Origin: Diogma glabrata
Lineage: Eukaryota > Arthropoda > Insecta > Diptera > Cylindrotomidae
Direction of reading: 5' to 3'
Assembly (NCBI GenBank): GCA_963693315.1
Contig: OY856188.1
Span: forward strand, 146,346,945-146,410,944
DNA length: 64,000 nt
Shown: in pieces, positions 11,338 through 45,441 of the stretch
Position numbering within the stretch: the first letter of the stretch is position 1
Layout of the letters: every line of letters begins with the position of its first letter
Notes under the pieces: model-generated
Seen by the model: only the letters and a program-made list of their open reading frames with translations
Told to the model about the DNA's origin: nothing
Database searches by the model: none
Position numbers and translations under genes: made by a program

Positions 11338-11836
11338 TTTTTTTAACATTTTTTATCAAAATATCCTTATCTGATAATATGTAATTTTAGCAGCAAAATG
11401 CTTTGAAATGTTGACAATTTTTTTACATGTTTTGATGCCGTACGCCATTTTTATGAATAAATAACTATATAAACACAATTAATTGTTGTGAAAAAAAACA
11501 GTTTAAATACTAATTTGTATAAAATTGAATTACAATTCAATATTTTAAGAACAAAATTCAGAAAAAACACTTTAGTTTGTTTTAAAATACGACGTAAACA
11601 AATGAAATGACATTGACAGTGTGGCAACCTAACAAATACATTTTTAAAAAAATGTATCACTGATCATTTGTGTACGTACACGTAGTGATATACTTCCTTA
11701 TATATATTTTATTCAATGCCCAAAATGGATGGATAAAAATTCACGATAAGACTGTATAAGTCATTATATTACTAAGTTAGAATGCATTCAGGAGATTCTT
11801 ACGACATCTGCCAAAATCTACGATATTTAGGCGCGC

Positions 11837-12384
11837 TATAGAGCGATTTTTCTGTTCTGATGTTAACCGCAATGGCGCTGCAAAAGGGGGATAAGAGAAA
11901 AAATCACTAAAACTTTATATGGGATTCCATACAAAACACAATTTGAATAATTTTAAAAGTTATCTATGAAATTTCTCATTTTACCACAATTGAACAATTT
12001 TAATTTGATTATAAAGTATTTTTGACTATATATTAAGCGTAATATATAAAATATTATTTTTAAGTCTCTTAAAAAATAAACATAAAAATTGCCAAAATTT
12101 CCCATACAAAGTTGTATGAAAAATTTAACCTATTTTCGTATTTGTTTTACGGACAGAAAAAATAAAATATTTTATATATTATGCTTATTATATAGTCAAT
12201 AATAGTTCATAAACAAATTTAAATTATTTAATTGTAGTAAAATGAGAAATTTCATAGATAATTTTAAAAATAATTCAACTTGTGTTTTGTATGAAATCCC
12301 ATATAAAATTTTTTGAATTTATTCTCTTATCCCCCTTTTGCAGCGCCATTGCGGTAAACACATGAACAGAAAAATCGCTCTATA
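11837..12384. mobile_element. Palindromic TIR element with TATA ends, copy P1
   Basis: The ends read TATAG(A/G)GCGATTTTTCTGTT, continuing inward through ACCGCAATGGCGCTGCAAAA and GGATAAGAG. The inverted copy at the other end is almost complete, so the ~548-bp element is a near-continuous hairpin. TATA stands at both edges. The right TATA is shared with the left end of the next copy. Confidence 0.85.
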
Positions 12385-12929
12385 GGGCGATTTTTCTGTT
12401 CTGGTGTTTACCGCAATGGCGCTGCAAAAGGGGGATAAGAGAAAAAATTCAAAAACTTTTATATGGGATTTCATACAAAACACAACTTGAATAATTTAAA
12501 AAATTTTCTATGAAATTTCTCATTTTTCCACAATTGAACAATTTTAATTTGCTTATGGAGTATTATTGACTATATTTTAAGCGTAATATATAAAATACTA
12601 TTCTTAAGTCGCTCAAAAAAGAAACATAAAAATTGCCAAAATTTCCCATACAAAGTTGTATGAAAAATTTAACCTATTTTCGTATTTGTTTTACGGACAG
12701 AAGAAAAGAAAATATTTTATATATTATGCTTAATATATTGTCAATAATACTTCATAAACAAATTTAAATTATTTAATTGTAGTAAAATGAGAAATTTCAT
12801 AGATAACTTTTAAAATTATTCAAATTGTGTTTTGTATGGAATTCCATATAAAATTTTTGTGATTTTTTCTCTTATCCCCTTTTTGCAGCGCCATTGCGGT
12901 AAACATACGAACAGAAAAATCGCCCTATA
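12381..12929. mobile_element. Palindromic TIR element, copy P2 (tandem with P1)
   Basis: Same family as P1, from TATAGGGCGATTTTT at 12381 to AAATCGCCCTATA at 12926-12929. It is joined head-to-tail to P1 at 12381-12384 and to a truncated third copy at 12926. It differs from P1 by scattered substitutions, so it is not a very recent duplication. Confidence 0.85.
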
Positions 12930-13020
12930 GGGTGATTTTTCTGTTCCGGTGTTTACCGCAATGGTGCTGCAAAAAGGGGATAAGAGAATAAATTTAAAAA
13001 ATTTTATATGGGATTTCCAT
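12926..13020. mobile_element. Palindromic TIR element, truncated third copy
   Basis: Starts TATAGGGTGATTTTTCTGTT, carries the ACCGCAATGGTGCTGCAAAA block, and ends abruptly near 13020 after TATATGGGATTTCCAT. The following 140 bp (13021-13160) show no homology to other repeats here and no gene. Confidence 0.8.
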
Positions 13021-17560: not shown

Positions 17561-17752
17561 TAAAGCTGTCCTCTAAGCAAATATTTTTCTTTAACTACAA
17601 AACTTCTATGAACTAACTTCTATAAAAAAAACTTATCTAAAATCTCTATCGTATTCAGTTTTTTCTAACAGTTGCCATTTTTTGAACATAACGAAATTGG
17701 CATAGGTTGAAAATACTCCAAAGTACCTTTAAACCCACTTTAAAAGATGACT

Positions 17753-20700
17753 TGTAGTGAAGCGCTTTCTCATTGGCGAACCAATGAGAAGGACATAGCA
17801 GGAAGCGTACCTAGCGAGATTGATTTTCAAGCCCCAAACTAGCTTCAGCCCATGGGAACGATAAAATAACCCTGCTACTTCAGCACAAATACAGACATGT
17901 ACGCTATTCACGAGAATTTGCAGAAATGGACAGAAATACAAGTGGAAAAACGGAGACTCTGGCGACCCCTGTTGCGAAAGACCCACGATCAACACGTCCA
18001 ACCCCCACGTTCGCTCACATACGCCCGCACACACACCCACACACACACACACACACACACATTCACACCCCCTTATCATTAAGACCTAATTAATAAGTTA
18101 AATTTACTCACCCCATGATTAAACCCCGTCCTCCTATTCTGCTTCCATCAGCCCTCCATCCGCACGTGGATCACGTTAGGAATCTCTCGAAATTATTTTA
18201 TAGGGTAACAATGTTGAATGGAGTTGCACGTACAAACGTGGTACGAAACGCCAAGTAGAAACGTTATGTATATTCGTAAAACTTTGTTGAATCGAAAAAA
18301 TATTGTAATTGATGTAAAATTTTGTTGAATCAACAATGGTAAGTAGAAACGTTATATAACTTTGTAAAATTTTGTTGGATCAAAAAATGATGTAATTGAT
18401 GTAAAATAATGTTGAATCAAAAAATGTTGTAATTGATGCCAAATATCGTTGAATCAAAATTGATAGGTAGAAACGTTATATAAATTTTGCAAAATTTGGT
18501 TGAATTAAAAATGATGTAATTGAGATAAAATGTTGTTGAATCCAAAAAATATTGTATTTGATGTAAAGTTTTGTTGAATCAAAAATGATGGAATTGATGT
18601 AAAATATGGTTGAATCAAAAACGATACGTAGAAACGTTATATAAATTTGTAAAAATTGTGTTGAATCAAAAATGATACGTGGAAACGGTATATAAATTTG
18701 TAAAATTTCGCTGAATCAAAAAAATGTTGTAATTGATGCAAAATATCGTTGAATCAAAAAATGTTGTAATTGATGCAAAATATCGTTGAATCAAAAATGA
18801 TAGGTAGTAACGTTATATAAATTTTGTAAAATTTTGTTGAATCAAAAAATATTGTAAGTGATGCAAAATATCGTTGAATCAAAAAATGTTGTAATTGATG
18901 CCAAATATCGTTGAATCAAAATTGATAGGTAGAAACATTATATAAATTTTGTAAAATTTGGTTGAATTAAAAATGATGTAATTGAGATAAAATGTTGTTG
19001 AATCCCAAAAAAAATATTGTAATTGATGTAAAGTTTTGTTGAATCAAAAATATTGTAATTGATGTAAAGTTTTGTTGAATCAAAATTATGGTAATTGATG
19101 TAAAGTTTTGTTGAATCAAAAATATTGTAATTGATGCAAAATATCGTTGAATCAAAAATGATAGGTAGTAACGTTATATAAATTTTGTAAAATTTTGTTG
19201 AATCAAAAAAATAATATTGTAATTGATGAAAAATTGGGTTGAATCAAAAATGATACGTCGAAACGTTAATTAAAAATTGGTAATCACCAGCGTGGAAGAA
19301 ATTTGTTACCAAAATTATTGAATGAATTCGTTATCAAAGCTGACATTGATGATAGACATATGGTGTCAAGATGTGCTGTGAAACTTGATAATGATTACAC
19401 AAATATGAGATACAACCTCGTTGTACAACTGGCCAATGATGATTTACGTTGGATGAAAATATGTGTATAAACCTTGATATGATACTATAAAAGTTGTGTC
19501 CAACTTTGTTGTAAAGGTTGACAATGATGATATCAGTTGGATGAAAATACGTTGTATGATCTTTGGTATGATATTGTAGAACGTTGCGCTGCACAATTAT
19601 TTCACCTCCCAGACGGATATTTTAACGATGATAAAAAAAACTCGGGCGATATAGATATAATTTTCTTTAATTTATAACTCGGAACATCTACAATACTTAG
19701 GTGTAATTAATTGTTAAATTCTATGATCTATTTTTGAGACAGAGTGTCATTATATCTATATATATATATATCAAATATCAATATGTATAACAATTAGTTG
19801 GATGAAATTCAGGATTGCATCGTAATTAATTTACGTTGGATAAGGCACTCGTTCTTATAAATTTTACCATAAATTAGGTTGAACTGAAAACCATTCAACT
19901 TCGGTGGGTATATATTATTCCTTAGTTCACAATTTATAACCAAGATTATGCGTACCAAACAGTTATAAATAATTGGAGATCAATTACACTAAATAATTAC
20001 CGCACAGAAAAGATAAAAAAAAAAAACAAATTCGAATGTTCTCGTTTTGTCGTCTACCGACATGCAATAAATAGACAGAGCTTCAAGGTCTCTTACTTAA
20101 CGGCACTAACATGCAGCATTTTTATTTTGTTTAAATCTCGTTAAGCTAATCGCCACGACGATACCAGAACCATACTGTAACTCTTTAGGGCTCATAAAAC
20201 ATTTTCTCCATCAACACAAATGCATTTACTTTAATTTTACCGTCACACTCAAAAACAAATGACTTCATTAACTTTATTTTTACGGATTAAAGAATAATTT
20301 TTGCATGAACATTCGACTATCAAGAAATAGACAATAAGAAATAATGTTACTGAACACGGAACAAACTTAGAGATTAAATTTATAATTTTACTATCGACTT
20401 GGCTTTGATTTTTATAACTCAAAACACAGTTAAGTCCAAACTGGATTTTCTACTTACACGGGCACATGATAAAATTCACATAACATCTCGTCCAGTAATA
20501 ACAACGGAAATACAAACACTATCGCACTGACTACGGCACAAACAGATAAATTATTCTTTTTTTTTTTATTATATTATTATATTATTACTTGAATAAAGAG
20601 AAACCGTATTAAAACATTTAATTCACTTTATCAAATTCACCATATTTTTTTCCTGTAACTCTTCACGAACTGTCAGACATCAAACACAAGAATTCAAAAG

Positions 20701-21638
20701 TAATAGATTTGAAAGAGTACTATGTGAATCGCTAAATTGAACTAAGCGAGAGAATAAGTTACCGTGCTCATTATATAGTCAAATTTTTAATCTCGCAGTA
20801 ACTCGAATAAAGTATTTAGATGGGAGATAATTAATTTACATCAGATTTTCAAATTATTGGGAACTTATTATAGTTCACAAAACCGTTTGCTATTTGATAA
20901 TATTGTACGAGAATAAGGTTGGGATACCGAATATTTCTGACACATCCATAATATTTATAATTGAATCCAAAATGAATTAAATGCAGATGCGATCAATGTT
21001 ATGATGTTTGGACGTTTATTAAACTACACCCTACTATATCAGCACAGTGAAGTTCAGTTTAATAACGGAAGGATTGTTTAAAGCAAAATACTCATACAAA
21101 GATAAATCAAATGTTTAACAAAGCAAAAATAGTAATTCGTTGTATGTTGACGATTGGAAACAAAATACACGTAGCCGTTATGAGGTTTTGAAAATTTCGT
21201 TGTTTCATTACGGTTTGTGTTTTAGAAAAAAATTCAAACTCAAGTAGTAAGGCGAGAACAATCGAATGGAAGTATAACGCGCGTCAATTTTAGTGCGTTG
21301 CAAGACTAAATTCTGATTAATTTTTTGTGATTATACGGATGATGATTAAGGAAGATTATTAATTAATTCAAATTAACCAATATTGTGGTATATTAATGAA
21401 TAAATAAATCAAGGTAATTAGTGTAATTTTCTTTCTCCTATACATTTGTCCGGCTATTGCAGATTTAGTAGATTTTAAGAAACGTAAGGAAACTATGGGT
21501 TAAGGAAACTACACGAAATATGACTATTGATGATGAAGGGATGAGAATCCATTACAAGCGTTACAGATTAATATAAGGAACAACAACTAAGGAAGCTGCG
21601 ACTATATTATACTATATTATCCCAGACTATCCATTACA
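17753..21638 (-). mobile_element. 3' LTR (left copy), 3,886 bp
   Basis: On the minus strand it runs from TGTAATGGATAG at 21638 to CACTACA at 17753. It contains a CA microsatellite (about 18027-18067), a minisatellite (about 18275-19265) and an alternating TA stretch (about 19755-19775). Apparent small frames in it are translations of these repeats. No promoter could be assigned from sequence alone. Confidence 0.95.
18275..19265. repeat. Minisatellite inside the LTR (left copy)
   Basis: About 1 kb of degenerate tandem units built on GTTGAATCAAAAA, AATTGTAATTGATGTAAAAT and GATAGGTAGAAACGTTATAT motifs. GTTGAATC recurs every 30-60 bp, more than 20 times. Units vary in order and length. The same array stands at 30358-31348 in the other LTR with matching unit order. 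Confidence 0.95.
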
Positions 21639-22422: not shown

Positions 22423-25116
22423 TTAGGCACGAATGTCCTTGGAATGGTAAACACCTCTACGTTTAGAAGCCAGGTCCTCCAGTTCGTAAGCAGCGCTACC
22501 TACCAACCTTATTACTCTGGCTTCAATAAACTTCTGCGCAAGTTTAGCCGATAATTTCTTACCGGCGTCACTCAAAATAAAATTCCTTCGGAACACCGTA
22601 TCACCTGGTTTAAACAAAGTTAACCGAGCTCGTAAGTTGTATCTTTCAGCACTTTTGACAAATGCTTCGGCAGTTAAATCAAGAATTCGAATTCGAATCT
22701 TATTAAGATAATCCGGTCGCAGAATCGTTTCACCTGGCTCAAGAAGACTATTCAGTCGTCTCAGCAGTTCATATGACGAACCATGAGTCACCATGGGTAA
22801 TCCAAACATTGCGTAATAAGGGGAACATTGAAGGGTTTGATGCAGGGAACAGCGTAGTGCACAAGCGATCTCGCTCAAGTGCAGATCCCATTTAGAATGC
22901 TCCTCCTTTAAATAGGCTCTAATACCAGATAAAACACTTCTATTCACCCGTTCAGAAGCGTTAGCTTGAGGTGAATATAACGCTAGCAATGAATGTTTCA
23001 CTCCGTGCTTCGCCAAGAAATCTTCAAATAGTTTAGACTTAAACTGCGTCCCATTATCGGACACAATAACTTCGGGACAACCAAATACGTGAAAGACATT
23101 GGTAGCCAATAGATGACAAATTGGTTCAGCAGTTAGTTTCCGTAAAGGAAACAAAAAAGGATATTTCGTAACATGATCCAATACTACAAGAATAGCGATA
23201 TTCCCGGCCCTTGAACGAGGATAAGGGCCAAGAATATCGATATACAATCGCTGACCAATTCGTTCTGTTTTCATCCGAGAAACCATGGGAGCACGAAGTG
23301 GAACATTAGTGGCTTTAATTTCTTTGCAGGTCTTACAATTTCCTATGTACGATTTAACCTGGGTATACATACGAGGCCAGTAGTAAAATTTACGAATATT
23401 AAACAAGGTTTTCGCTAGACCTCCATGAGATGAGGTAGGAGGATTGTGGGCCCTTGCAATACACTCGTCAGTGTATTCCTCAGGTAACCACAATTTCCAA
23501 ACCTCACCCTCTGAAGGAATATCAAGATCTAGACAAGCCGTTCGTTTATAAACCCGACCAGAAATTACTTTCAGATCAGGCAATGTACCGTCTGCTTCGG
23601 TAACCAGATTTACCAACTCCAGATATCGAGAAGTGTTGAAGAAAGGGGAATTAAGATCTAATTCAGGCACTGGACATAATTCAGAAATGACGTCAACAGA
23701 GTCACGTCTTGATAGAGTGTCTGGAACTATGTTTAAACTTCCTTTTCGGTACTCAATATCAAAGACATAACCCTGCAATTTCAAGCTCCAACGAGCCAAT
23801 CGACCAGAAAGGTCTTTTTGTTGCATTAACCATCTTAATGAAGCATGATCAGTTATGATCTTAAAGGCCTGGCCCTCGACATACGCTCTAAATTTCTTTA
23901 CTCCCAGTACGGCGGCTAGACACTCTTTCTCACTAGTTGAGTAATTGCGTTGCGCAGAATTTAGTTTCTTGGACATGTACGCTATGGGATGTTCCATACC
24001 GTCCATGTCACGCTGAAGTAATACACAGCCTATACCGTCATTACTAGCGTCGCACTGGAGAGTAAAAGGTTTAGTATAGTCGGGGTTTATGAGGACTGGT
24101 GCTGATATGAGAGCATTTTTGAGATTTATAAATGCTATCTCAGCTTCTGGTGTCCATACGAATTTATTAGAATTTTTCTTCAACAAATCTGATATTGGAG
24201 AGGACATAGCAGAGAAATCGGATATAAAACGGCGATAATAACCCGCCATACCCAGGAATCGTGGAATCTGTTTGGACGTACGCGGTGTAGGAAATTCAGA
24301 AATAGCTTGCGTTTTATCAGGATCAATTTTTAGCTTACCACCTCCCACTACATATCCCAAATATTTTACATCCGGCAAGAGAAACTTACTTTTTTTCACG
24401 TTTATCGTCAAGTTCGCACGTCTAAGACACTGGGAGATATCTTCTAACAGTTTCAGATGGGCCTCAAAGGTATCTGTAACTATTAGAAGATCATCCAAGT
24501 ATACGAAGACGCACGACTTGAGATGTGGAGGAATTACTTGGTCCATCAATTTGGTCATTGTTTGTGGCGCATTGCACAGTCCGAAAGGCATCCTTACGAA
24601 CTGATACAATGGCCGCCCTGGGACCGTAAAAGCAGTTTTCTCTCGGGAGTGTTTTTCTAACGGTATCTGCCAGAAAGCGTCTTTCAGATCTAAACTGGAA
24701 ATGAAATTACTTTGTGGCAGACGACTCAAGATTCCATCTATCTGTGGGAGGGGGTAAGCATCCTTCTTAGTAACTGTATTGACCTTTCTACTATCCAAAC
24801 AGAGACGATTCTTCCCAGGTTTGCGAATTAAGACCACCGGACTTGACCATGGGCTGTTTGAAACCTCTATAATACCCAGAGACAACATCCTATCCAGTTC
24901 TTCTCCCATCAGTTTCTCAATGGCGGGCGATATTGGATAGTGTCGTTGCTTGATGGGAGCTGCAGTCCCCACATCAATAACGTGTTCCAACAAATGTGTT
25001 CGACCCAGACCCATTTTTGAAAATGATGGTAGAAGCTGAATAGTGTTTTGTAGACGTGCTTGATTGTCCATAGACAATTCTGAAATTCCTGACTCCGTGT
25101 CGAAAATGTAGGTAAG
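22423..25116 (-). CDS. pol: Pol: reverse transcriptase, RNase H, integrase
   Basis: One open frame of nearly 900 codons, opening after a TAA at 25117-25119. RT copies the element RNA into DNA: LCLDSRKVN, SLDLKDAFWQIPLE, MPFGLCNAPQTM and the YLDD active site are present. A connection and RNase H follow (QCDASNDGIGCVLLQ, EKECLAAV, ITDHASLRWL). The integrase zinc domain is intact (H...H...CKTC from HNPPTSSHGG to GNCKTCKEIK). The catalytic core has all three acidic residues (YIDILGPY, VSDNGTQF, ASERVNR). The C-terminus has a GPY/F-like region (KFIEARVIRLVGSAAYEL) and ends at DIRA. The YPLPQIDG and LDLKDAFWQIPL forms place it in Ty3/Gypsy. No chromodomain is evident. It lacks its own obvious start and would be made as a Gag-Pol fusion. 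It is in the -1 frame relative to the protease segment, an oddity discussed under findings. Confidence 0.95.
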   Translation of the reverse strand, partial: LTYIFDTESGISELSMDNQARLQNTIQLLPSFSKMGLGRTHLLEHVIDVGTAAPIKQRHYPISPAIEKLMGEELDRMLSLGIIEVSNSPWSSPVVLIRKPGKNRLCLDSRKVNTVTKKDAYPLPQIDGILSRLPQSNFISSLDLKDAFWQIPLEKHSREKTAFTVPGRPLYQFVRMPFGLCNAPQTMTKLMDQVIPPHLKSCVFVYLDDLLIVTDTFEAHLKLLEDISQCLRRANLTINVKKSKFLLPDVKYLGYVVGGGKLKIDPDKTQAISEFPTPRTSKQIPRFLGMAGYYRRFISDFSAMSSPISDLLKKNSNKFVWTPEAEIAFINLKNALISAPVLINPDYTKPFTLQCDASNDGIGCVLLQRDMDGMEHPIAYMSKKLNSAQRNYSTSEKECLAAVLGVKKFRAYVEGQAFKIITDHASLRWLMQQKDLSGRLARWSLKLQGYVFDIEYRKGSLNIVPDTLSRRDSVDVISELCPVPELDLNSPFFNTSRYLELVNLVTEADGTLPDLKVISGRVYKRTACLDLDIPSEGEVWKLWLPEEYTDECIARAHNPPTSSHGGLAKTLFNIRKFYYWPRMYTQVKSYIGNCKTCKEIKATNVPLRAPMVSRMKTERIGQRLYIDILGPYPRSRAGNIAILVVLDHVTKYPFLFPLRKLTAEPICHLLATNVFHVFGCPEVIVSDNGTQFKSKLFEDFLAKHGVKHSLLALYSPQANASERVNRSVLSGIRAYLKEEHSKWDLHLSEIACALRCSLHQTLQCSPYYAMFGLPMVTHGSSYELLRRLNSLLEPGETILRPDYLNKIRIRILDLTAEAFVKSAERYNLRARLTLFKPGDTVFRRNFILSDAGKKLSAKLAQKFIEARVIRLVGSAAYELEDLASKRRGVYHSKDIRA

Positions 25117-25888
25117 TTAAATATCGGGTTAAACAAACCAAAAGCGTTAAAGAAATCTATACCTAGATATAGATTTTGAGTCAAAGACGGGATAATGAAG
25201 ACGTCCAGGGTTCTGACTTGGTTCATAAATGAAATCTTTGTTTTTACAAACCCCAAGATCTTCTGTCTTTGGCCATCGGCAGTACGAACTACGGCAGACG
25301 AATAAGTCAGAAGGTCTGGAGTCTGTACGATTTCTTTAGCAAAATCACCACCAATTACAGTCAAGGACGCTCCACTATCCAACAGTCCAGTATGTTGTTT
25401 ACCCAATATTGACACTGTGGCATAAGATCTCACATCGTTGGCCAATTTCACAATAGAGGAAATGGTTTTAGTTTTAAACAAATGACGTTGTTGCCAATAA
25501 ATACGAGAACGGAGCGCAGAGCGCGATGGAAGTTTCAAAGATGATAATGAATCGACAAATAGGTTTGAGCGTATTTTCAGGTATTCGTTCAATCGTTGTT
25601 GGAACGATTTGATTTTGGTCCATAATGGAGGTGGTTCAGTATGAGCGGGCGTTCGTTTCAATAATGTTACATTGATATCATGGGTGGATACCAGTGTATC
25701 AGAAGCAGTATTCAACGGGTGTTCTATAAAAGTGGATGTTGACGCTCGGCTCAACAGTGTATCGTGTACCGGTAAGTTATTGGGATTGGTAGATGAAATA
25801 TCTGAAGAATCAGGAGAAAAATTAATTTTGGTCTCAGATGCATCTAAGACAGGTCCTGGGAGCGAGAAAAGGTGTTGGGATTCTGGCC
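25103..25888 (-). CDS. pol: Pol, N-terminal part: aspartic protease
   Basis: This frame is -1 relative to gag and overlaps its last 45 nucleotides. It has a long polar linker of about 160 residues, then the retropepsin core: HTGLLDSGASLTVIGG with the catalytic D-S-G, and SLTQNLYLGIDFF for the flap-distal ILG-like strand. Protease would cleave the Gag-Pol polyprotein in the particle. Homology to Gypsy polyproteins stops making sense after a TTTT run at 25103-25106, although the frame stays open to 24909. The matching continuation lies in the -1 frame (starting FDTESGISELS). The product probably comes from ribosomal frameshifting at 25886-25892. Confidence 0.9.
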
Positions 25889-27409
25889 CCCCCTTCGGTT
25901 TCCCTGACAATTTTCACAATTAGGACATAACACATCGTCCTTCCCACATCCCCAACAAAACAATCGCTGAGATTCACGACAATCGTGCCACCGATGACCA
26001 GGTCGTTTACAGTTCCAACAAATAGTTGAACTGGTTATTCGTTTTATATTAGGGGCGGGCTGTATTGCCGCGAGTTCGTTAGATGTAATTGGTAACGATT
26101 CAGTTGGCAATTCGCTAATTTGAATTTGTGAGAATTCACGATCCAAGTCCACTTCTGACACTGGTCTAGATGGTCTAATAGTATAATCTCGTGGTCTGGT
26201 TATTGATTCGGCCCATAATTTTTCACGATCACGGCAGAGCTGGCGCAGATGTTCCAGTCCATAAATGGTGACATAAAGTAGCTCCCTTCTAATTTCCAAT
26301 CGTAAGTTGTTGCGAATCAAGGAGAACAACTCCACATCCGGCATCGGTACTCGTAGTTTATCGCCTAGTCGATAAATTGATTGTAAGAATTCATCAAACA
26401 ATTCGGTGGGCCGCTGTTTCCTGGCCCTCATCCGCTCCTTTACCTCTTCGTCCGTCTGCCTGTCCTGAAATTCTATTCGAAGAGCCTGACATAAGTCGGT
26501 CCAAATAAGCTGTCGGTTCTGGCGAAAATATCTCCAGAACCAATCAGCGGCTCGATCTGTGAATAACAGGTATAGACAACGGGTGACAATAGTAAAATCG
26601 CTATTTAAACACATCTCCGTCAGCCGCTCTATTCTGAAGATGAACGCTTCAACATCCAGACCATCGGGTCTGCCTGAGAACGTAACGTTCCAATTTCTAA
26701 CTGTGGTAGAGTGCTGATCGAGATGTGTTCGCAATCTAGCCGGAGCAAGAGCAGGAGGAGGTTCAGCAAACATTGGTGGTACCGGTACGTTATTCCGTAC
26801 ATACGCATTTACTGGTGTATAATTTCCGGAATGAACCGATTGATGTCTCGGGGTGGTGGGCGATACTACATTATGTGCTAGGGGTAACAACACTTCAGGT
26901 GCCAGAGCACGCGATTGCATCATGGAGTGATTAATCCTTGAAATTTCCTGATCGATGTGAGCATTTACAGCTTCCTGAAAACCATGATCTTCCGCTGCCG
27001 CGGTACCATGTATGGGAGATCGTTGAGCTAGATTCACTCGCACTTCATCGGCGAGTCGGGATGGTGGAAGACGGTTTGCCAAGGGAGTGGACGAGGGTTG
27101 ATTTCCGGTGCTGGAACGACGTTGCCAACCTGCGGTAACAGATCGAGTCACAGGTCGCGGTGGAGGTGGCACTATTGTATAATTATTTTTATCTATCCCT
27201 CGAGGCAACCTTTGTAATTCTGCACGCTCACAAGCGGCTCGACAAATTGGACAGGTGCGATTCTGCAACAACCAGTCGTTGAGGCAGATGTCATGAAAGA
27301 GGTGGTTACACCGAGTGAGAAGTTTTACGTCGGCCGGCACTATTTCGTGTTGACAAACAGCACAAGAGCTGGACCTATCCAGAACGTCAATCTTATCAGC
27401 GGCAGACAT
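25844..27409 (-). CDS. gag: Gag with an N-terminal RING-H2 zinc finger
   Basis: 521 residues from ATG at 27409. Residues 16-56 form a complete RING-H2 finger: C16-x2-C19-x14-C34-x-H36-x2-H39-x2-C42-x10-C53-x2-C56. It carries the Trp (W46) and Pro (P54, in CPIC) typical of E2-binding RING ubiquitin ligases. Residues ~60-240 are a Pro/Ser/Arg-rich linker. Residues ~245-400 match the Ty3/Gypsy capsid fold (NWNVTFSGRPDGLDVEAFIF, RAADWFWRYF, TELFDEFLQSIYRLGDKL). Residues 464-477 are a CCHC zinc knuckle (CWNCKRPGHRWHDC) and 485-501 a Cys-rich second finger. Gag should assemble particles and bind RNA. A RING in this position is not a standard Gag domain and probably was acquired; an E3 activity is inferred and not shown. 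The frame is intact and the start is well defined because the RING would be lost with any later Met. Confidence 0.95.
   Translation of the reverse strand: MSAADKIDVLDRSSSCAVCQHEIVPADVKLLTRCNHLFHDICLNDWLLQNRTCPICRAACERAELQRLPRGIDKNNYTIVPPPPRPVTRSVTAGWQRRSSTGNQPSSTPLANRLPPSRLADEVRVNLAQRSPIHGTAAAEDHGFQEAVNAHIDQEISRINHSMMQSRALAPEVLLPLAHNVVSPTTPRHQSVHSGNYTPVNAYVRNNVPVPPMFAEPPPALAPARLRTHLDQHSTTVRNWNVTFSGRPDGLDVEAFIFRIERLTEMCLNSDFTIVTRCLYLLFTDRAADWFWRYFRQNRQLIWTDLCQALRIEFQDRQTDEEVKERMRARKQRPTELFDEFLQSIYRLGDKLRVPMPDVELFSLIRNNLRLEIRRELLYVTIYGLEHLRQLCRDREKLWAESITRPRDYTIRPSRPVSEVDLDREFSQIQISELPTESLPITSNELAAIQPAPNIKRITSSTICWNCKRPGHRWHDCRESQRLFCWGCGKDDVLCPNCENCQGNRRGGQNPNTFSRSQDLS
25886..25892 (-). promoter_or_regulatory. 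Candidate -1 ribosomal frameshift site GGGGGGC
   Basis: In the gag frame the codons read AGG GGG GGC, so the heptamer G GGG GGC fits the X XXY YYZ rule exactly. Slipping back one base enters the protease frame, which is open from before this point. The run is seven Gs on the minus strand (25887-25893). I did not verify a downstream pseudoknot or stem-loop. Confidence 0.65.
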
Positions 27410-28659
27410 TATGAATCTCAAACCGCCGCACAGGACCAGATCAATAAATGTACGTATATGGAGAGCGAAACGAAAATTATTACACTATCGATGTGAACTT
27501 TGAATCCAAATAAACAATTTAATTATCAACAGAAAAGATTACTTTATTCCAATATTTGATTACTTTGAATATTTTAAAGCAGAATTTAAAAAAAATTATA
27601 TGGAAGTTTAGCGTTTCAAACCTCAAACAGCTGCGCAATATTTTTTTTCAATTCGACAATTATATTAAATCAGATTGATTATTATCTTGATATTATTTTA
27701 TTACTATTTACAACTGTTTTCCAAGGTGCTGATATATGAACAGAACAACAAAAAAAAATAAATGGTGAGATTTGAGAAAAAAGTATACTACAAATATGGC
27801 AGAAGATGGCAATTACGAAAATACTACTGTGTTCAAAGATATTAGAGTAGCGTTTAAAGAGTGGTATGTCGATATAATTATTATTAAGACGATATAAGTA
27901 TTCAAACCTTGAACAGCCGCGCGAGATCTGACCAATTCGACACAAGTATAATTTTTTTTTTTGCTTTAAAAAAAAAATCTTAATCTGACAACAGCCGAGC
28001 GTGTAACACACAAAAAAAACTATCCTGGCTGATGCTTGTATTTGATTTGAACAAACAAGGTAAAAATTGTACTGTAAGAGAAAATAAGGATACTAAGAAT
28101 ATGGCAGAAGATGGCAATAATATAAACTGTTCCAGACCCAAAAGGTCAACAGGTCACTCGAACTACTAGGAAATGCTAGATGAGTGCAGATATATCCCTC
28201 CGGTGGGGGCGGAGAAATTAATAATTTCAACCGATAATAACAAAAAAATTGATTTATAACAAACTTAAAATCTACCATGCATTAAGGAACACAAGAATAA
28301 AAAAGGTACTAATACGACTTAAATTTAAAACAAACAAAAATACTATAGCTGTGTTGTTGTCCTGGTGGTAGGTTGTAATATTGATAATTTGATGTATTCT
28401 CGGTAAATAGTATAATTTTTTTCTTCTTTATAATTTGATGTCTTCTAGGTAGATAGTATTTCCTATATGATTGGATATCTTGATTTCAATATTTCCCTTT
28501 TTTTTTTATATATTTAGGTGGATCCTACAATTTTGAGAGAAAGAAACAATTAATACCTAATATTATCAGCAAATTGAGTTATTTATTTATTTATATTTTT
28601 TTCTTTTATATAAATATTTATTTATTTATTTTTATATAAACATTTATTTATTTAGTATA

Positions 28660-28700
<41 letters not shown>

Positions 28701-29814
28701 TTATTTATTTATTTTTTTAATAAATATTTATTTAATTATTTATTTATTTACTATATTTATTTATTTACTGACGATGGACGGACGGACCAATCAAGGGGGG
28801 AGTTCACCACACCTGGGGTTGAAGATGGTGATCGCCGTTCTTTCTTAATTTATGTTGATTTTATTTTGTTTTTTTAGTTTGTTTGGGGACCAAAGAAAAG
28901 TTTAAAATTACACTACGTTAAAGGATGGGAGATCCGAAAGGAAAAGGGAAGCAGAGGGGATGTAAAAGGATGGGAAAAGGTAGGGCGGGAAAGGAATAAG
29001 ATGGGGTATGTGCTGATGGGATCTCACCCAGCTGACAAGTGTTGACGGGATGGCCAGAAGATAAATCCTCTGGACCACCATTCGATCATCAACACCCGCC
29101 AACTGCGATCCACACCACCAACACATACGGGCGAGGTGCTATGACCTGAGTGGATTCAGTCAACCACGGCATAAAAGCTGAGCGGACATCTTCCCTCAGT
29201 AGCTGATCGGGCTACTTTGGAAAATGTCCCTCAGTATTATCCATGGGGAACCGAAACACTCAGGCCATAGGAAACCAATATTGTCGGGAGGGGACTCTAA
29301 CAATTAGACAATATCAGTCCGGACTGGACTCTGAGGACACCACGAACCCGAAGCCTGACCAGGTGACCAGACTCGGACGAGAATTGGCGTATACACCAAT
29401 ACACGTCAGTCTAGGTCTGGCACCTGAATCACCTTCGGCCCTCGTGACATCGCCAGAAACCCAGCCCGTAACTAGGGTCCGTGGGGTTGTAATGCCCATT
29501 GGAAATACTTCCTAAGAAATATTCCCACCCTTGCGTTAACCAAAAAAAAACAAAAGGAGAAATATTGCTGGAGGCGTAGGGACGCAACTCCCCATCAAAG
29601 AAAAGTCTGAGGGATCTCAGACTTCCTTTGCTCCTGCGCGTATGAAGCAGGGAATTGCTTCTACGCCGCCAGAGCCTCTAACTATTATATGGTGGATAAT
29701 GAAAATTTAAAAGAAGAAAAAAAATTTTAACAAAAAAATTTTTCCAAAGTTTTTTTTTTGTAATTTGAAGGGACTCCTCCAGAGTCCTACACCGCTGTAG
29801 GGACCCTTAGAGTA
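27410..29814 (-). other. Long 5' leader of the retrotransposon
   Basis: 2.4 kb between the primer-binding site and gag, without a convincing gene. It contains a run of 36 T on the plus strand (28663-28698) inside a TTTA/TTTAT-rich tract (about 28570-28770), and a GC-richer segment (28770-29520). A plus-strand frame at 29243-29515 is antisense and without homology. A repeated tract, ATATGGCAGAAGATGGCAAT, occurs at about 27796 and 28099. Confidence 0.7.
28663..28698. repeat. Homopolymer run of 36 T
   Basis: Unbroken T run, poly(A) on the retrotransposon's sense strand, flanked on both sides by (TTTA)n microsatellite. It could be slippage or the tail of an inserted retrosequence. Its exact length may vary with sequencing. 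Confidence 0.95.
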
Positions 29815-29832
29815 GCCCCACGTTGGGCGCCA
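29815..29832 (-). promoter_or_regulatory. Primer-binding site for tRNA-Lys
   Basis: The minus strand reads TGGCGCCCAACGTGGGGC, the full 18-base complement of the 3' end of animal tRNA-Lys (CUU). It starts 3 nt after the 5' LTR. Minus-strand DNA synthesis would be primed here. It fixes the orientation of the element, in agreement with gag and pol. Confidence 0.95.
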
Positions 29833-29835
29833 ATT

Positions 29836-32800
29836 TGTAGTGAAGCGCTTTCTCATTGGCGAACCAATGAGAAGGACATAGCAGGAAGCGTACCTAGCGA
29901 GATTGATTTTCAAGCCCCAAACTAGCTTCAGCCCATGGGAACGATAAAATAACCCTGCTACTTCAGCACAAATACAGACATGTACGCTATTCACGAGAAT
30001 TTGCAGAAATGGACAGAAATACAAGTGGAAAAACGGAGACTCTGGCGACCCCTGTTGCGAAAGACCCACGATCAACACGTCCAACCCCCACGTTCGCTCA
30101 CATACGCCCGCACACACACCCACACACACACACACACACACATTCACACCCCCTTATCATTAAGACCTAATTAATAAGTTAAATTTACTCACCCCATGAT
30201 TAAACCCCGTCCTCCTATTCTGCTTCCATCAGCCCTCCATCCGCACGTGGATCACGTTAGGAATCTCTCGAAATTATTTTATAGGGTAACAATGTTGAAT
30301 GGAGTTGCACGTACAAACGTGGTACGAAACGCCAAGTAGAAACGTTATGTATATTCGTAAAACTTTGTTGAATCGAAAAAATATTGTAATTGATGTAAAA
30401 TTTTGTTGAATCAACAATGGTAAGTAGAAACGTTATATAACTTTGTAAAATTTTGTTGGATCAAAAAATGATGTAATTGATGTAAAATAATGTTGAATCA
30501 AAAAATGTTGTAATTGATGCCAAATATCGTTGAATCAAAATTGATAGGTAGAAACGTTATATAAATTTTGCAAAATTTGGTTGAATTAAAAATGATGTAA
30601 TTGAGATAAAATGTTGTTGAATCCAAAAAATATTGTATTTGATGTAAAGTTTTGTTGAATCAAAAATGATGGAATTGATGTAAAATATGGTTGAATCAAA
30701 AACGATACGTAGAAACGTTATATAAATTTGTAAAAATTGTGTTGAATCAAAAATGATACGTGGAAACGGTATATAAATTTGTAAAATTTCGCTGAATCAA
30801 AAAAATGTTGTAATTGATGCAAAATATCGTTGAATCAAAAAATGTTGTAATTGATGCAAAATATCGTTGAATCAAAAATGATAGGTAGTAACGTTATATA
30901 AATTTTGTAAAATTTTGTTGAATCAAAAAATATTGTAAGTGATGCAAAATATCGTTGAATCAAAAAATGTTGTAATTGATGCCAAATATCGTTGAATCAA
31001 AATTGATAGGTAGAAACATTATATAAATTTTGTAAAATTTGGTTGAATTAAAAATGATGTAATTGAGATAAAATGTTGTTGAATCCCAAAAAAAATATTG
31101 TAATTGATGTAAAGTTTTGTTGAATCAAAAATATTGTAATTGATGTAAAGTTTTGTTGAATCAAAATTATGGTAATTGATGTAAAGTTTTGTTGAATCAA
31201 AAATATTGTAATTGATGCAAAATATCGTTGAATCAAAAATGATAGGTAGTAACGTTATATAAATTTTGTAAAATTTTGTTGAATCAAAAAAATAATATTG
31301 TAATTGATGAAAAATTGGGTTGAATCAAAAATGATACGTCGAAACGTTAATTAAAAATTGGTAATCACCAGCGTGGAAGAAATTTGTTACCAAAATTATT
31401 GAATGAATTCGTTATCAAAGCTGACATTGATGATAGACATATGGTGTCAAGATGTGCTGTGAAACTTGATAATGATTACACAAATATGAGATACAACCTC
31501 GTTGTACAACTGGCCAATGATGATTTACGTTGGATGAAAATATGTGTATAAACCTTGATATGATACTATAAAAGTTGTGTCCAACTTTGTTGTAAAGGTT
31601 GACAATGATGATATCAGTTGGATGAAAATACGTTGTATGATCTTTGGTATGATATTGTAGAACGTTGCGCTGCACAATTATTTCACCTCCCAGACGGATA
31701 TTTTAACGATGATAAAAAAAACTCGGGCGATATAGATATAATTTTCTTTAATTTATAACTCGGAACATCTACAATACTTAGGTGTAATTAATTGTTAAAT
31801 TCTATGATCTATTTTTGAGACAGAGTGTCATTATATCTATATATATATATATCAAATATCAATATGTATAACAATTAGTTGGATGAAATTCAGGATTGCA
31901 TCGTAATTAATTTACGTTGGATAAGGCACTCGTTCTTATAAATTTTACCATAAATTAGGTTGAACTGAAAACCATTCAACTTCGGTGGGTATATATTATT
32001 CCTTAGTTCACAATTTATAACCAAGATTATGCGTACCAAACAGTTATAAATAATTGGAGATCAATTACACGAAATAATTACCGCACAGAAAAGATAAAAA
32101 AAAAAAACAAATTCGAATGTTCTCGTTTTGTCGTCTACCGACATGCAATAAATAGACAGAGCTTCAAGGTCTCTTACTTAACGGCACTAACATGCAGCAT
32201 TTTTATTTTGTTTAAATCTCGTTATGCTAATCGCCACGACGATACCAGAACCATACTGTAACTCTTTAGGGCTCATAAAACATTTTCTCCATCAACACAA
32301 ATGCATTTACTTTAATTTTACCGTCACACTCAAAAACAAATGACTTCATTAACTTTATTTTTACGGATTAAAGAATAATTTTTGCATGAACATTCGACTA
32401 TCAAGAAATAGACAATAAGAAATAATGTTACTGAACACGGAACAAACTTAGAGATTAAATTTATAATTTTACTATCGACTTGGCTTTGATTTTTATAACT
32501 CAAAACACAGTTAAGTCCAAACTGGATTTTCTACTTACACGGGCACATGATAAAATTCACATAACATCTCGTCCAGTAATAACAACGGAAATACAAACAC
32601 TATCGCACTGACTACGGCACAAACAGATAAATTATTCTTTTTTTTTTTATTATATTATTATATTATTACTTGAATAAAGAGAAACCGTATTAAAACATTT
32701 AATTCACTTTATCAAATTCACCATATTTTTTTCCTGTAACTCTTCACGAACTGTCAGACATCAAACACAAGAATTCAAAAGTAATAGATTTGAAAGAGTA

Positions 32801-33719
32801 CTATGTGAATCGCTAAATTGAACTAAGCGAGAGAATAAGTTACCGTGCTCATTATATAGTCAAATTTTTAATCTCGCAGTAACTCGAATAAAGTATTTAG
32901 ATGGGAGATAATTAATTTACATCAGATTTTCAAATTATTGGGAACTTATTATAGTTCACAAAACCGTTTGCTATTTGATAATATTGTACGAGAATAAGGT
33001 TGGGATACCGAATATTTCTGACACATCCATAATATTTATAATTGAATCCAAAATGAATTAAATGCAGATGCGATCAATGTTATGATGTTTGGACGTTTAT
33101 TAAACTACACCCTACTATATCAGCACAGTGAAGTTCAGTTTAATAACGGAAGGATTGTTTAAAGCAAAATACTCATACAAAGATAAATCAAATGTTTAAC
33201 AAAGCAAAAATAGTAATTCGTTGTATGTTGACGATTGGAAACAAAATACACGTAGCCGTTATGAGGTTTTGAAAATTTCGTTGTTTCATTACGGTTTGTG
33301 TTTTAGAAAAAAATTCAAACTCAAGTAGTAAGGCGAGAACAATCGAATGGAAGTATAACGCGCGTCAATTTTAGTGCGTTGCAAGACTAAATTCTGATTA
33401 ATTTTTTGTGATTATACGGATGATGATTAAGGAAGATTATTAATTAATTCAAATTAACCAATATTGTGGTATATTAATGAATAAATAAATCAAGGTAATT
33501 AGTGTAATTTTCTTTCTCCTATACATTTGTCCGGCTATTGCAGATTTAGTAGATTTTAAGAAACGTAAGGAAACTATGGGTTAAGGAAACTACACGAAAT
33601 ATGACTATTGATGATGAAGGGATGAGAATCCATTACAAGCGTTACAGATTAATATAAGGAACAACAACTAAGGAAGCTGCGACTATATTATACTATATTA
33701 TCCCAGACTATCCATTACA
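29836..33719 (-). mobile_element. 5' LTR (right copy), 3,884 bp
   Basis: Nearly identical to 17753-21638. It contains the same CA run (about 30110-30150, two bases shorter) and the same minisatellite (about 30358-31348). Transcription should start within it on the minus strand; the start site cannot be placed from sequence alone. Confidence 0.95.
30358..31348. repeat. Minisatellite inside the LTR (right copy)
   Basis: Same GTTGAATCAAAAA-based array as 18275-19265, in the same order, as expected from reverse transcription copying one LTR into the other. Confidence 0.95.
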
Positions 33720-34515
33720 GACTGTTGCTAAATATTGACGAAATTAGCTTGTACTGTACTGTCTATTGGTTTAAAAATTCGATTTTAATTTATGTTTATA
33801 ACCATACTTCGACTAATAAACTAATAATAAATGTATAAACATCGTAGATAAATTGAAAATCCTTATGATTATATATGTTTGAACAATATATTTCACTATT
33901 AAAAATTCTAGATCAAATCCGTTTAAACTTTAAATCATATTCAAATTTATATTTTTTACACACATTTTTCATAACAAACAAAAACTTTATACAATCCCTG
34001 TGAATGGGCGTGTCTAACAAAATTGTTTTGACATTTTGGCAAACTTACATTTGAGAAATTAAGTAAAAAATTAAATTAGAAAATAATTAATTTTGTGACA
34101 CAAACTTATTGTAAATATATTAAAAATATATACTAAATTGTTTTTTTAACATTTTTTATCACAATATCCTTATCTGATAATTGTAATTTTAGTAGCAAAA
34201 TGTTTTGGAATGTTGACAATTTTTTTACATGTTTTGATGAAGTACACCATTTTTATGAATAAATAACTGTATAAACACAATTAATTGTTGTAAAAAAAAC
34301 AGTTTAAATACTAATTTGTATAAAGCTGAATTACAATTCAATACTTTAAGAACAAAATTCAGAAAAAAGCTCTTTAGTTTGTTTTGAAATACGACGTAAA
34401 CAAATGAAATGACATTGACAGATTGGCAAACTTAACAAAAAATTAAAAAAAAATGCTTCACCGATTATTTGTGTACGTACACGTAGCGACACTTCCTTAT
34501 ATATTTTATTCAATG
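33720..34515. repeat. Large repeat unit, copy C, right part
   Basis: Resumes the unit after the LTR element (GACTGTTGCTAAATATTGACG, compare GATTGTTCCTAAATATTGACG in A and B). It lacks the SINE-like insertion of A and B: ACTAAATTG occurs once at about 34134. It is more diverged from A and B than they are from each other. Homology ends at ATTTTATTCAATG near 34515. Confidence 0.9.
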
Positions 34516-34974
34516 GGGATTTCATACAAAACACAACTTGAATAATTAGAAAAATTATCTATGAAACTTATTTTACTACAATGAAATAATTTAAATTTGT
34601 TTATGAACTATTATTGACTATATATTAAGCATAATACGTAAAATATTTTATTTTTTCTGTCCGTAAAACAAATACGAAAATGGGTTAAATTTTTCATACA
34701 ACTTTGTAAGGGAAATTTTGGCAATTTTTATGTTTGATTTTTGACAGATTTAAGAATAATATTTTATATATTACGCTTAATATATAGTCAATAATACTTT
34801 ATAATCAAATTAAAATTGTGCAATGGTGGTAAAATGAGAAATTTCTTAGAAAACTTTTAAAATTATTCAAGTTGTTTTGTATGGAATCCCATATAAAATT
34901 TTTGTGATTTTTTCTCTTATCCCCCTTTTGCAGCGCCATTGCGGTAAACACCGGAACAGAAAAGTCGCCCTATA
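34516..34974. mobile_element. Rearranged partial palindromic TIR element
   Basis: Contains the inner part of the P1/P2 family (ATTTCATACAAAACACAACTTG, then an inverted order of internal blocks) and one good end (GCAGCGCCATTGCGGTAAAC... to TATA at 34971-34974). The left arm end is missing. Confidence 0.7.
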
Positions 34975-35519
34975 GGGCGATTTTTCTGTTCTGGTGTTTA
35001 CCGCAATGGCGCTGCAAAAAGGGGATAAGAGAATAAATTCAAAAACTTTTATATGGGATTTCATACAAAACACAACTTGAATAATTTTAAAAGTTATCTA
35101 TGAAATTTCTCATTTTACCACAATTGAACAATTTTAATTTGCTTATGGAGTATTATTGACTATATTTTAAGCGTAATATATAAAATATTATTCTTAAGTC
35201 GCTCAGAAAAGAAACATAAAAATTGTCAAAATTTTCCATACAAAGTTGTATGAAAAATTTAACCTATTTTCGTATTTGTTTTACGGACAGAAGAAAAGAA
35301 AATATTTTATATATTAAGCTTAATATATAGTCAATAATACTTCATAAACAAATTTAAATTATTTAATTGTAGTAAAATGAGAAATTTCATAGATAACTTT
35401 TAAAATTATTCAAATTGTGTTTTGTATGGAATTCCATATAAAATTTTTGTGATTTTTTCTCTTATCCCCTTTTTGCAGCCCCATTGCGGTAAACACCGGA
35501 ACAAAAAAATCGCCCTATA
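34971..35519. mobile_element. Palindromic TIR element, copy P4
   Basis: Complete copy of the TATAGGGCGATTTTT family, tandemly joined to the partial copy on its left through a shared TATA. On its right a small MITE (35520-35711) begins directly after its last TATA (35516-35519). Confidence 0.85.
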
Positions 35520-43453: not shown

Positions 43454-43551
43454 ATATATGTAAGTATTTTTAATATTTCATTTTGACGTTTAAGTAAAAA
43501 GGTCAATGCACGGCTTAAAGTGTCAGTTTTGGTATTTTTAAACCACATTAA

Positions 43552-44468
43552 CAGGCTGATTCTGACATACCCTCACAGATGTAAAAATAATCATAGTAAA
43601 GACTTTTCTCTTAGCTAAGACTAAAACCTCTTAAATGCGATTCTGTATGTAGTCACAACTGTGAGATGTCAAAAAAAACCTCTTAACGTATAAGACCATC
43701 AAACATGGTCATCTTAAGCATCATAATTTAATGTTACATATTTTTTTATTTGAATTCTTGTATGAAAAATTATATTAATAAAGGATAAAATATTATTTAT
43801 GTAATTATTATAAAATTTATAATAATTATCTATATTTTATTATAGTTTGAATCAAAAATATAAAACAAAATATATATTGATAATGATTTTAAATAAAATG
43901 GCGATTGAAAATTATATATTTGCACTATCAAAGTTTGGTGTCTCATGTTGTTCTATTTGTGCAAATTTTATATAAACTTTAAGAAAAACTATCATTTTTT
44001 TTTCACAAATCTATTGCAAAATAAATAATAATAATCAATATATTATATGGTATAATTTTATATTAATTGTACATAAATCAATAAAATATATTTCAAGATT
44101 GATATTCAATCAATAAAATGGCGGTTGAATATTTTCACAAACAAAAATTATTTATATCTCAAAAAATTTTCCAAAACATAAACTTGATTTTTATAAAAAA
44201 AAACTATTATATAATATTACTATATTTCTTAATAATAATTTATATGGTATTTCAATATGTCTTTAAATTATTTAAAAAGAAAGTATGACATTTTATAATA
44301 ATTTTGTTTATAAAAATAGCCGTTTGAAAGATCTCCAAAATATTTGTAGAATTATTATGAGGTTTTTTATGACAACGTTCACAGAATCGCAATTAAGATA
44401 TTCCTCTTAAAAAAATTGTCATAACAAAAATAATCATAGCTAAGACCTCTTAACTCAGAATCAGCCTG
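43552..44468 (+). mobile_element. 917-bp MITE, CAGGCTGATTCTGA ends, TAA duplication
   Basis: Inverted ends CAGGCTGATTCTGACATACC and (reverse complement) CAGGCTGATTCTGAGTTAAG. TAA at 43549-43551 and 44469-44471. Noncoding. A second copy in opposite orientation lies 68 bp downstream. Confidence 0.9.
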
Positions 44469-44536
44469 TAAATCATCAGTTTTAAATGTAGATTAAAGTT
44501 GTAGTTGCAGATTTAGTCATGGATATCGGTGATTAA

Positions 44537-45441
44537 CAGGCTGATTCTGAGTTAAGAGGTCTTAGCTATGATTATTTTTGTTATGACAATTTTTTTAAGA
44601 GGAATATCTTAATTGCGATTCTGTGAACGTTGTCATAAAAAACCTCATAATAACTCTACAAATATATTTTGGAGATCTTTCTAACGGCTATTTTTATAAA
44701 CAAAATTATTATAAAATGTCATATTTTCTTTTTAAATAATTTAAATACAAATTAAAATACCATATAAATTATTATTAAGAATTATGGTATATTGTATAAT
44801 AATTTTTTATAATAATCAAGTTTTTGTTTTAGAAAATTTTTAAAGATATCAATAATTTTTGTTTGTGAAAATGTTCAACCGCCATTTTATTGATTGAATA
44901 TCAATCTTGAAATATATTTTATTAATTTATGTACAATTAACATAAAATTATACCATATAATATATTCATTATTATTATTTATTTTGCAATAGATTTGTGA
45001 AAAAAAATTATAGTTTTTTCTTAAAGTTTATATAAAATTTGCACAAATAAAACAACATGAGACACCAAACTTTGATAGTGCAAATATAAAATCTTCAATC
45101 GCCATTTTATTTAAAATCATTAACAATATATATTTTATTCAATAATTTTGATACAATATAGATAAATATTATAAATTTTATAAGAATTACATAAATAATT
45201 CATAATTTATTCTTTATTAATATAATTTTTCATACAAGAATTCCAATAAAAAAATATGAAACATTAAATTGTGATGCTTAAGATGACCATGTTTGATGGT
45301 CTTAAGTATGAGGTTTTTTTTAGACATCTCACAGTTGTGACTACATACAGAATCGCATTTAAGAGGTTTTTGTCTTAGCTAAGAGAAAAGTCTTTGCTAT
45401 GACTATTTTTACATCTGTGAGGGTATGTCAGAATCAGCCTG
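44537..45441 (-). mobile_element. 905-bp MITE, same family, opposite orientation
   Basis: Reverse-complement copy of 43552-44468 with small indels. TAA at 44534-44536 and 45442-45444. The two copies together form an inverted repeat with ~0.9-kb arms and a 68-bp loop. Confidence 0.9.

What the first reader, a model, noticed from the sequence alone, without database searches (positions are those of the whole stretch)
25844..27409. A Gypsy Gag that carries a complete RING-H2 finger at its N-terminus
All eight metal ligands are present with canonical spacing (C16, C19, C34, H36, H39, C42, C53, C56), as well as the Trp and CPIC Pro used for E2 contact. The same uninterrupted frame continues into a normal capsid and CCHC nucleocapsid. 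The element is young and the frame open, so the domain is likely under selection. A retrotransposon that encodes its own E3-like ligase on Gag could ubiquitinate host restriction factors, promote particle release, or control Gag turnover. The RING is seen in the sequence. Its acquisition from a host and its activity are inference.
Basis: partly seen in the sequence, partly recalled or inferred. Interest (0 to 1): 0.88.

Follow-up and report, generated by a model that had tools for sequence, protein, structure and literature searches.

The report
RING-finger Gag of an Osvaldo-like retrotransposon
A jumping element, probably in a fly or mosquito relative, makes a capsid protein with a ubiquitin-ligase-type RING finger at its front end; such fusions were already noted in related fly elements, but here the finger is kept across many copies and several sister families as if it does a real job.

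Summary
ORF 27409-25844 (minus strand, 521 aa) joins a complete RING-H2 finger (zf-RING_2 E 2.9e-10), a Gag capsid (E 1.3e-6) and a weak CCHC finger in one frame. It lies in a young 16-kb Ty3/Gypsy element (LTRs differ by 2 mismatches and one 2-nt gap) whose pol frame is broken in this copy. The fusion is not new: a Calliphora Osvaldo-lineage element with a RING on its 531-aa Gag was reported in 2013. All 83 fetched copies encode the RING; in 80 with a frame of 500 codons or more, ligands, Trp46, Pro54 and Arg57 are invariant and RING pN/pS is 0.10 (capsid 0.09). A RING-less Gag query led to eight sister families; 45 of 46 fetched loci encode a RING, intact in 28 and damaged or displaced in 17. 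One family lacks the Trp and Arg, and its RING is relaxed (0.36 against capsid 0.11). Best reading: an old, selected, E2-binding RING in the matrix position, probably a ligase clustered by Gag assembly. Ligase activity and targets are inference. Verdict: real, known kind, moderately interesting.

The parts
29836..33719 (-). 5' LTR (TGTAATGG...CACTACA), about 3.9 kb, with internal minisatellite arrays
   Evidence: self-BLAST and end inspection; tandem repeats
17753..21638 (-). 3' LTR, 99.9% identical to the 5' LTR
33720..33723 (-). target site duplication AGTC, copy before the 5' LTR
17749..17752 (-). target site duplication AGTC, copy after the 3' LTR
29815..29832 (-). primer binding site of tRNA-Lys type (the complementarity to tRNA-Lys is recalled, not computed)
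   Evidence: sequence; PMC3286476 section 13 says the primer site of mosquito Osvaldo-like elements is invariantly complementary to tRNA-Lys
27410..29814 (-). long leader between primer site and Gag; 13 ATGs counted from 29834 to 27410
25844..27409 (-). Gag ORF, 521 aa
27239..27364 (-). RING-H2 finger, Gag residues 16-57 (ligands C16 C19 C34 H36 H39 C42 C53 C56; W46, P54, R57)
26195..26704 (-). capsid region, Gag residues 236-405 (Retrotrans_gag; similar to Drosophila Arc2)
25895..26029 (-). nucleocapsid zinc fingers, Gag residues 461-505 (CCHC plus a second Cys-rich finger)
24909..25913 (-). protease frame of pol (stop to stop), overlapping the end of gag by 70 nt in the -1 frame
22423..25116 (-). 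RT-RNaseH-integrase frame of pol (stop to stop); out of frame with the protease in this copy

Best explanation
This is the Gag gene of a young, multicopy, Osvaldo-like Ty3/Gypsy retrotransposon. The RING-H2 finger takes the place that matrix has in retroviral Gags, in front of a variable linker, the capsid and the nucleocapsid fingers. It is shared by divergent Gag families and looks to be under purifying selection (shown, with the sampling bias stated). Most likely it binds a ubiquitin-loaded E2 and works as a RING ubiquitin ligase (inferred from the kept ligands, Trp, Pro and linchpin Arg, whose roles are recalled). Because Gag assembles into a lattice, many RINGs would be brought together, which could switch the ligase on, much as clustering does for TRIM5 (recalled; inference). 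The likeliest targets are Gag itself or proteins bound to the particle, to tune Gag turnover, trafficking or release, or host antiviral proteins (inference; targets unknown).
For: RING models above curated cut-offs. The best PDB sequence matches are RINGs of named E3 ligases such as Arkadia and RNF126. 83 of 83 fetched copies encode the RING pattern. In 80 of 80 copies with a frame of 500 codons or more, all ligands, W46, P54 and R57 are invariant; pN/pS RING 0.10 (codon bootstrap 0.02-0.29), capsid 0.09, linker 0.18. Nine Gag families (F0-F8, capsid identity 42-76%) have the RING at the same place, with zf-RING_2 above cut-off in 8 of 8 sister representatives. 45 of 46 loci reached with a RING-less Gag query encode a RING: 28 intact in the Gag frame, 17 damaged or outside it. 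Family F3, without the Trp and linchpin Arg, has a relaxed RING (0.36 against capsid 0.11, 14 copies), as expected if E2 binding is what is selected.
Against: No activity data. The 83 copies were ranked by whole-protein score, which favours copies with few amino-acid changes and a kept RING; the RING interval overlaps the linker's (0.10-0.29). The linchpin Arg is Thr or Gln in three of nine family representatives (F3, F5, F6). Across all nine families RING and capsid identities do not correlate (r 0.10, 3348 of 9999 permutations as high); only without F3 do they (r 0.53, 113 of 9999), and F3 was left out after its RING had been seen. Structure predictions were uninformative (pLDDT 36 and 56). 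Isis, of the Osvaldo lineage, is reported to lack the RING and so does without it.
Confidence: 0.55

Rival explanations
1. The RING is a structural matrix-like module: it folds, oligomerises or binds membranes or partners to help Gag assemble or leave the cell, without ligase activity, as one might compare with the arenavirus Z protein (recalled).
For: It sits where retroviral Gags have matrix and stays in front of capsid in all nine families; three of nine representatives lack the linchpin Arg and one of these lacks the Trp, yet most F3 copies still keep the zinc ligands.
Against: W46, P54 and R57 are invariant in 80 of 80 copies of this family and W is present in eight of nine family representatives; a purely structural zinc finger would not need the E2-contact residues.
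Confidence: 0.25
2. The RING is a decoy or adaptor: it binds E2s or host RING proteins and blocks host ubiquitin-based restriction rather than ubiquitinating anything.
For: Consistent with kept E2-contact residues and with lattice multivalency (inference).
Against: The linchpin Arg, which matters for transfer rather than binding (recalled), is invariant in this family.
Confidence: 0.12
3. The RING is a passive host-gene fragment carried by one recently captured element, with no selected role.
For: Elements do capture host fragments (recalled); Isis is reported to lack the RING.
Against: pN/pS 0.10 with 0 of 2000 bootstrap values at or above 1; RING in nine divergent families; RING Gags reported in Osvaldo and Calliphora Isis-like.
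Confidence: 0.03
4. Translation starts after the RING, so the protein in use lacks it.
For: 13 upstream ATGs in the leader make the start uncertain.
Against: ATG 27409 has A at -3 and the next in-frame Met is residue 163, deep in the linker; sister families also have a Met just ahead of the RING; the RING's protein sequence looks constrained.
Confidence: 0.03

Closest known systems
Isis-like element of Calliphora vicina, Osvaldo lineage (PMC3630058; section 7 read, other passages seen)
   Same: Gypsy element of 10,995 bp with long LTRs (2577/2574 bp), 4-bp TSD, 531-aa Gag with a RING finger, separate pol ORF
Osvaldo of Drosophila buzzatii (as stated in PMC3630058 and PMC3286476; original paper not seen)
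   Same: RING finger present; primer tRNA-Lys
   Different: Sequence not compared
Isis of Drosophila buzzatii (as stated in PMC3630058)
   Same: Osvaldo lineage; pol related to the Calliphora element
   Different: Reported to lack the RING and to carry an env domain
Osvaldo-like elements of Culex quinquefasciatus (PMC3286476; section 13 read, passages seen)
   Same: Long LTRs (997-2055 bp), primer site always tRNA-Lys, mostly 4-bp TSDs in the table
   Different: The word RING does not occur in its main text (whole-word search)
Burro giant Gypsy elements of planarians (PMC6431247; passages seen)
   Same: RING-related and ubiquitin-pathway motifs reported in a Gypsy polyprotein
   Different: 4,873-aa polyprotein; its N-terminus is described as a typical Gag with retrotrans_gag motif and CCHC knuckles
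Host TRIM5 and arenavirus Z (recalled, no call)
   Same: A RING joined to a capsid-lattice binder, and a RING inside a viral matrix protein
   Different: Unrelated proteins; analogy of working only

Membership tests
Ty3/Gypsy LTR retrotransposon | LTR pair, TSD, primer site, Gag, PR-RT-RNaseH-IN order | tested here: met
   pol frame broken between PR and RT in this copy
Osvaldo lineage of Ty3/Gypsy | pol groups with named Osvaldo or Isis sequences in a tree | not testable with these tools
   no sequence so named was available; the five organism-named proteins among the 120 listed of 4770 hits are all flies, 53-55% identical
Osvaldo lineage of Ty3/Gypsy | primer site complementary to tRNA-Lys | tested here: inconclusive
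   the 18-nt site was found; its match to tRNA-Lys is recalled, the lineage rule is from PMC3286476
Osvaldo lineage of Ty3/Gypsy | long LTRs and 4-bp TSD | tested here: met
   3.9 kb and AGTC; longer than the 997-2055 bp given for Culex
RING-H2 finger | eight C3H2C3 ligands with canonical spacing | tested here: met
RING ubiquitin ligase | E2-contact Trp, Pro and linchpin Arg (roles recalled) | tested here: met
   W46, P54, R57 in 80 of 80 copies; Trp and Arg missing in family F3, Arg also in F5 and F6
RING ubiquitin ligase | binds an E2 and transfers ubiquitin | not testable with these tools
   needs biochemistry
RING-bearing Gag as reported for Osvaldo and Isis-like | RING finger on the Gag ORF, in frame with capsid and nucleocapsid | tested here: met
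   published precedent (where in Gag the RING lies was not stated in the section read)

The most novel reading that the evidence does not exclude
A whole lineage of retrotransposon capsids carries its own built-in ubiquitin ligase, switched on by lattice assembly: the mirror image of TRIM5, with the element rather than the host putting RINGs on the capsid. At least one sister family has lost the catalytic face and its RING is decaying, giving a natural loss-of-function comparison.
Probability: 0.3. Interest if true: 0.75.

Novelty: new member of a known kind. Interest (0 to 1): 0.42.

Why it matters
RING fingers on Osvaldo-lineage Gags have been mentioned in print, but none of the nine searches of the held library showed me a test of what they do. 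The evidence here says the RING is about as constrained as the capsid and is shared by many Gag families in one genome, so it is worth testing. If it is an active ligase, mobile elements would be shown to encode a ubiquitin enzyme inside their own capsid protein.

Tried and rejected
Protein search with whole Gag gave no hit at E 0.001 (7997 candidates scored), and with region 236-345 none at E 10 (48 candidates), so Gag relatives came only from the window's own genome and from P0006, found by a pol search. Viral contigs gave no relative for Gag or pol. The genome-contig scan gave 47 loci, 46 of them 24-42% identical in the best pol segment and L045 55% over 98 residues; none of the 47 showed the RING pattern in a frame of 90 aa or more. 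This is a weak control: many contigs are short, and I did not check which hold a Gag. AlphaFold2 without an alignment was useless for Gag (pLDDT 36) and for residues 1-69 (56), so no fold search was made. NCBIfam gave only a sub-cut-off rad18 match for Gag. A RING tree with host genes was not built: the 150 scored zf-RING_2 places in the genome could not be cut out. Of those 150, at least 42 lie within 1.5 kb upstream of a Gag match listed; I picked the pairs by eye and one search checked those 42 only. Many others sit in repeated frames of 480-491 aa and may be further Gag families; this was not checked. A planarian Burro origin, my first guess, was dropped. Hermetia P0006 shows no RING in its Pfam scan, but it may be a truncated gene model, so I do not count it as a loss.

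Full report
What is there. On the minus strand, 27409-25844 is an open frame of 521 codons. Residues 15-57 match zf-RING_2 (40.7 bits, cut-off 27.3), residues 282-366 match Retrotrans_gag (28.9, cut-off 24.1), and residues 464-478 resemble a CCHC knuckle below cut-off (14.2 against 20.8). All eight ligands, Trp46, Pro54 and Arg57 are at the stated positions, and a strict RING-H2 pattern appeared in 0 of 20000 shuffles of the protein. The capsid part also matches Drosophila Arc2 in the PDB (E 4.6e-4). The RING part is closest to RINGs of named E3 ligases such as Arkadia and RNF126.

The element. Two LTRs of 3.9 kb (33719-29836 and 21638-17753) differ by 2 mismatches and one 2-nt gap. AGTC stands on both sides of the pair, so this is a single insertion of about 16 kb. 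Just inside the 5' LTR is an 18-nt site, TGGCGCCCAACGTGGGGC, which I recall as the complement of tRNA-Lys. Each LTR contains minisatellite arrays. The protease frame overlaps the end of Gag by 70 nt in the -1 frame. In this copy protease and RT are in different frames; in 6 of 8 copies examined they share one frame. The Pol of this insertion is therefore damaged, although its Gag is open.

Which lineage. The RT-integrase frame is 58% identical to its best hit. Of 4770 hits, 120 are listed; the five of these that carry an organism name are all flies: Hermetia, Drosophila ananassae, Drosophila pseudoobscura, Scaptodrosophila and Episyrphus, 53-55% identical. PMC3286476 (section 13 read) gives long LTRs and tRNA-Lys priming as marks of the Osvaldo-like elements of mosquitoes; PMC5408442 (passages) describes an Osvaldo/Ulysses group in Drosophila. 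No reference sequence named Osvaldo was available, so membership by tree is not tested. The window's genome is 1.33 Gb and unnamed; that it is a fly or mosquito relative is inference from the pol hits.

Prior art. [quoted passage not shown] A supplementary legend of the same paper colours a RING finger in its Pao element (passage). The legend of Figure 1 in a 2026 Drosophila virilis paper lists a RING domain among element domains; the text does not say which element (PMC12910113, section 18). The finding is therefore not a new kind of object. Nine literature searches, seven of them about RING and Gag, showed me no functional study of these RINGs. I opened seven papers in part and saw the rest as listings only.

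Conservation within the family. The Gag protein matched 83 scored places in its own genome, 96-100% identical over nearly the whole length, 5 of 83 with a stop inside; 83 is a lower bound, since 6240 places passed the first look. I fetched all 83, and all 83 encode the RING pattern in an open stretch. Three (L052, L081, L087) were dropped for stops before residue 500. In the other 80, all ligands and the three E2-contact or linchpin residues are invariant. Pairwise pN/pS is 0.10 for the RING (bootstrap over codons 0.02-0.29), 0.09 for capsid, 0.07 for nucleocapsid and 0.18 for the linker (0.10-0.29). Copies were ranked by whole-protein score, which biases all regions towards low pN. The comparison between regions is safer than the absolute values, and the RING and linker intervals overlap. 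A capsid-only sample was asked for twice and not answered.

Conservation between families. To avoid choosing for the RING, I searched the genome with the RING-less Gag part of Hermetia P0006: 140 candidates were scored and gave 194 matches, not all of them listed. Of these places I fetched 46 (L131-L176): the 30 best by score and 16 chosen by hand for different frame lengths. 28 of 46 have an intact RING pattern in the Gag frame; 12 of these 28 are of family F3. Of the other 18, tblastn with the family RINGs finds a RING in 17: with lesions, outside the Gag frame, or cut by the end of the fetched stretch (L169). It finds none in L134. L166 is itself the F8 query, so its match is not independent. 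Together 45 of 46 encode a RING or a damaged RING. At least four of the 46 (L163, L164, L168, L174) belong to the window's own family; L174 has stops inside its RING and the other three are intact. By eye the loci fall into families F0 (the window's) and F1-F8. The eight sister representatives all pass the zf-RING_2 cut-off (33.0 to 53.8 bits), L166 with its first Cys missing. Capsid identities between families are 42-76% and RING identities 24-71%. These loci are related copies, so the family count matters more than the locus count.

A natural contrast. Family F3 (L139-L160 except L141) keeps most ligands but has no Trp and no linchpin Arg. Of its loci, 14 have a full N-terminal frame; among these L139 has lost the first His and L154 a ligand Cys. 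Its RING pN/pS is 0.36 against 0.11 for its own capsid (linker 0.39). This is what one expects if the E2-facing surface is what selection holds in the other families. The numbers are small and the copies are related.

Results against. RING and capsid identities do not correlate across all nine families (r 0.10, 3348 of 9999 permutations at least as high); after leaving out F3 they do (r 0.53, 113 of 9999). F3 was left out after its degenerate RING had been seen. The linchpin is Thr or Gln in F5 and F6 as well as F3. The F8 representative L166 has lost its first Cys, which its sister L173 retains. No useful structure model was obtained.

How it works. Shown: the RING is in frame, intact in most copies, shared by divergent families and constrained. 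Inferred: it binds an E2 and transfers ubiquitin; assembly of Gag clusters RINGs and raises activity; the target is Gag itself or a particle-bound or antiviral host protein. The main rival is a structural matrix role. The start codon at 27409 is likely in use: A at -3, next in-frame Met at 163, and a Met just ahead of the RING in sister families.

Verdict. A real and well-conserved feature, already reported in kind. Its worth lies in the selection evidence and the built-in comparison between catalytic-looking and degenerate families.

Noticed in passing
window 22120-22050 (-): A stretch in the non-coding part between pol and the 3' LTR looks like part of a tRNA-Lys (recalled likeness). Rfam and ARAGORN find nothing. 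PMC3286476 section 13 describes a tRNA-Lys/Glu dimer inserted in a Culex Osvaldo-like element.
   Followed up: partly
window 18255-19268 and 30336-31349: Minisatellite arrays with periods of about 36-125 nt and longer inside both LTRs.
   Followed up: no
window 25116-24909 (-): Protease and RT are out of frame in this copy and in L053, while the other 6 of 8 examined copies have them in one frame.
   Followed up: yes
window 43547-45446; also 11836-12930, 34516-35435, 7428-7903: Long palindromic stretches that match their own reverse complement at 85-94%.
   Followed up: no
window 48169-49191 (-): A second, distant Gypsy-type integrase frame (rve, E 1.4e-11; about 27% identical to this element's integrase).
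   Followed up: no
L139-L160 except L141: Sister family F3 has a degenerate RING without the E2-contact Trp and linchpin Arg, with relaxed constraint.
   Followed up: yes
G000, listing: Many of the best zf-RING_2 matches in the genome lie in repeated open frames of 480-491 aa that I did not see in the listed part of the Gag search; they may be more RING-bearing mobile families.
   Followed up: no
Gag residues 58-93 in families F0-F8: A short conserved tail follows the RING (Leu at 65 in eight of nine, Thr at 88 in eight of nine, Arg at 89 in nine of nine), which may be part of the functional unit.
   Followed up: no
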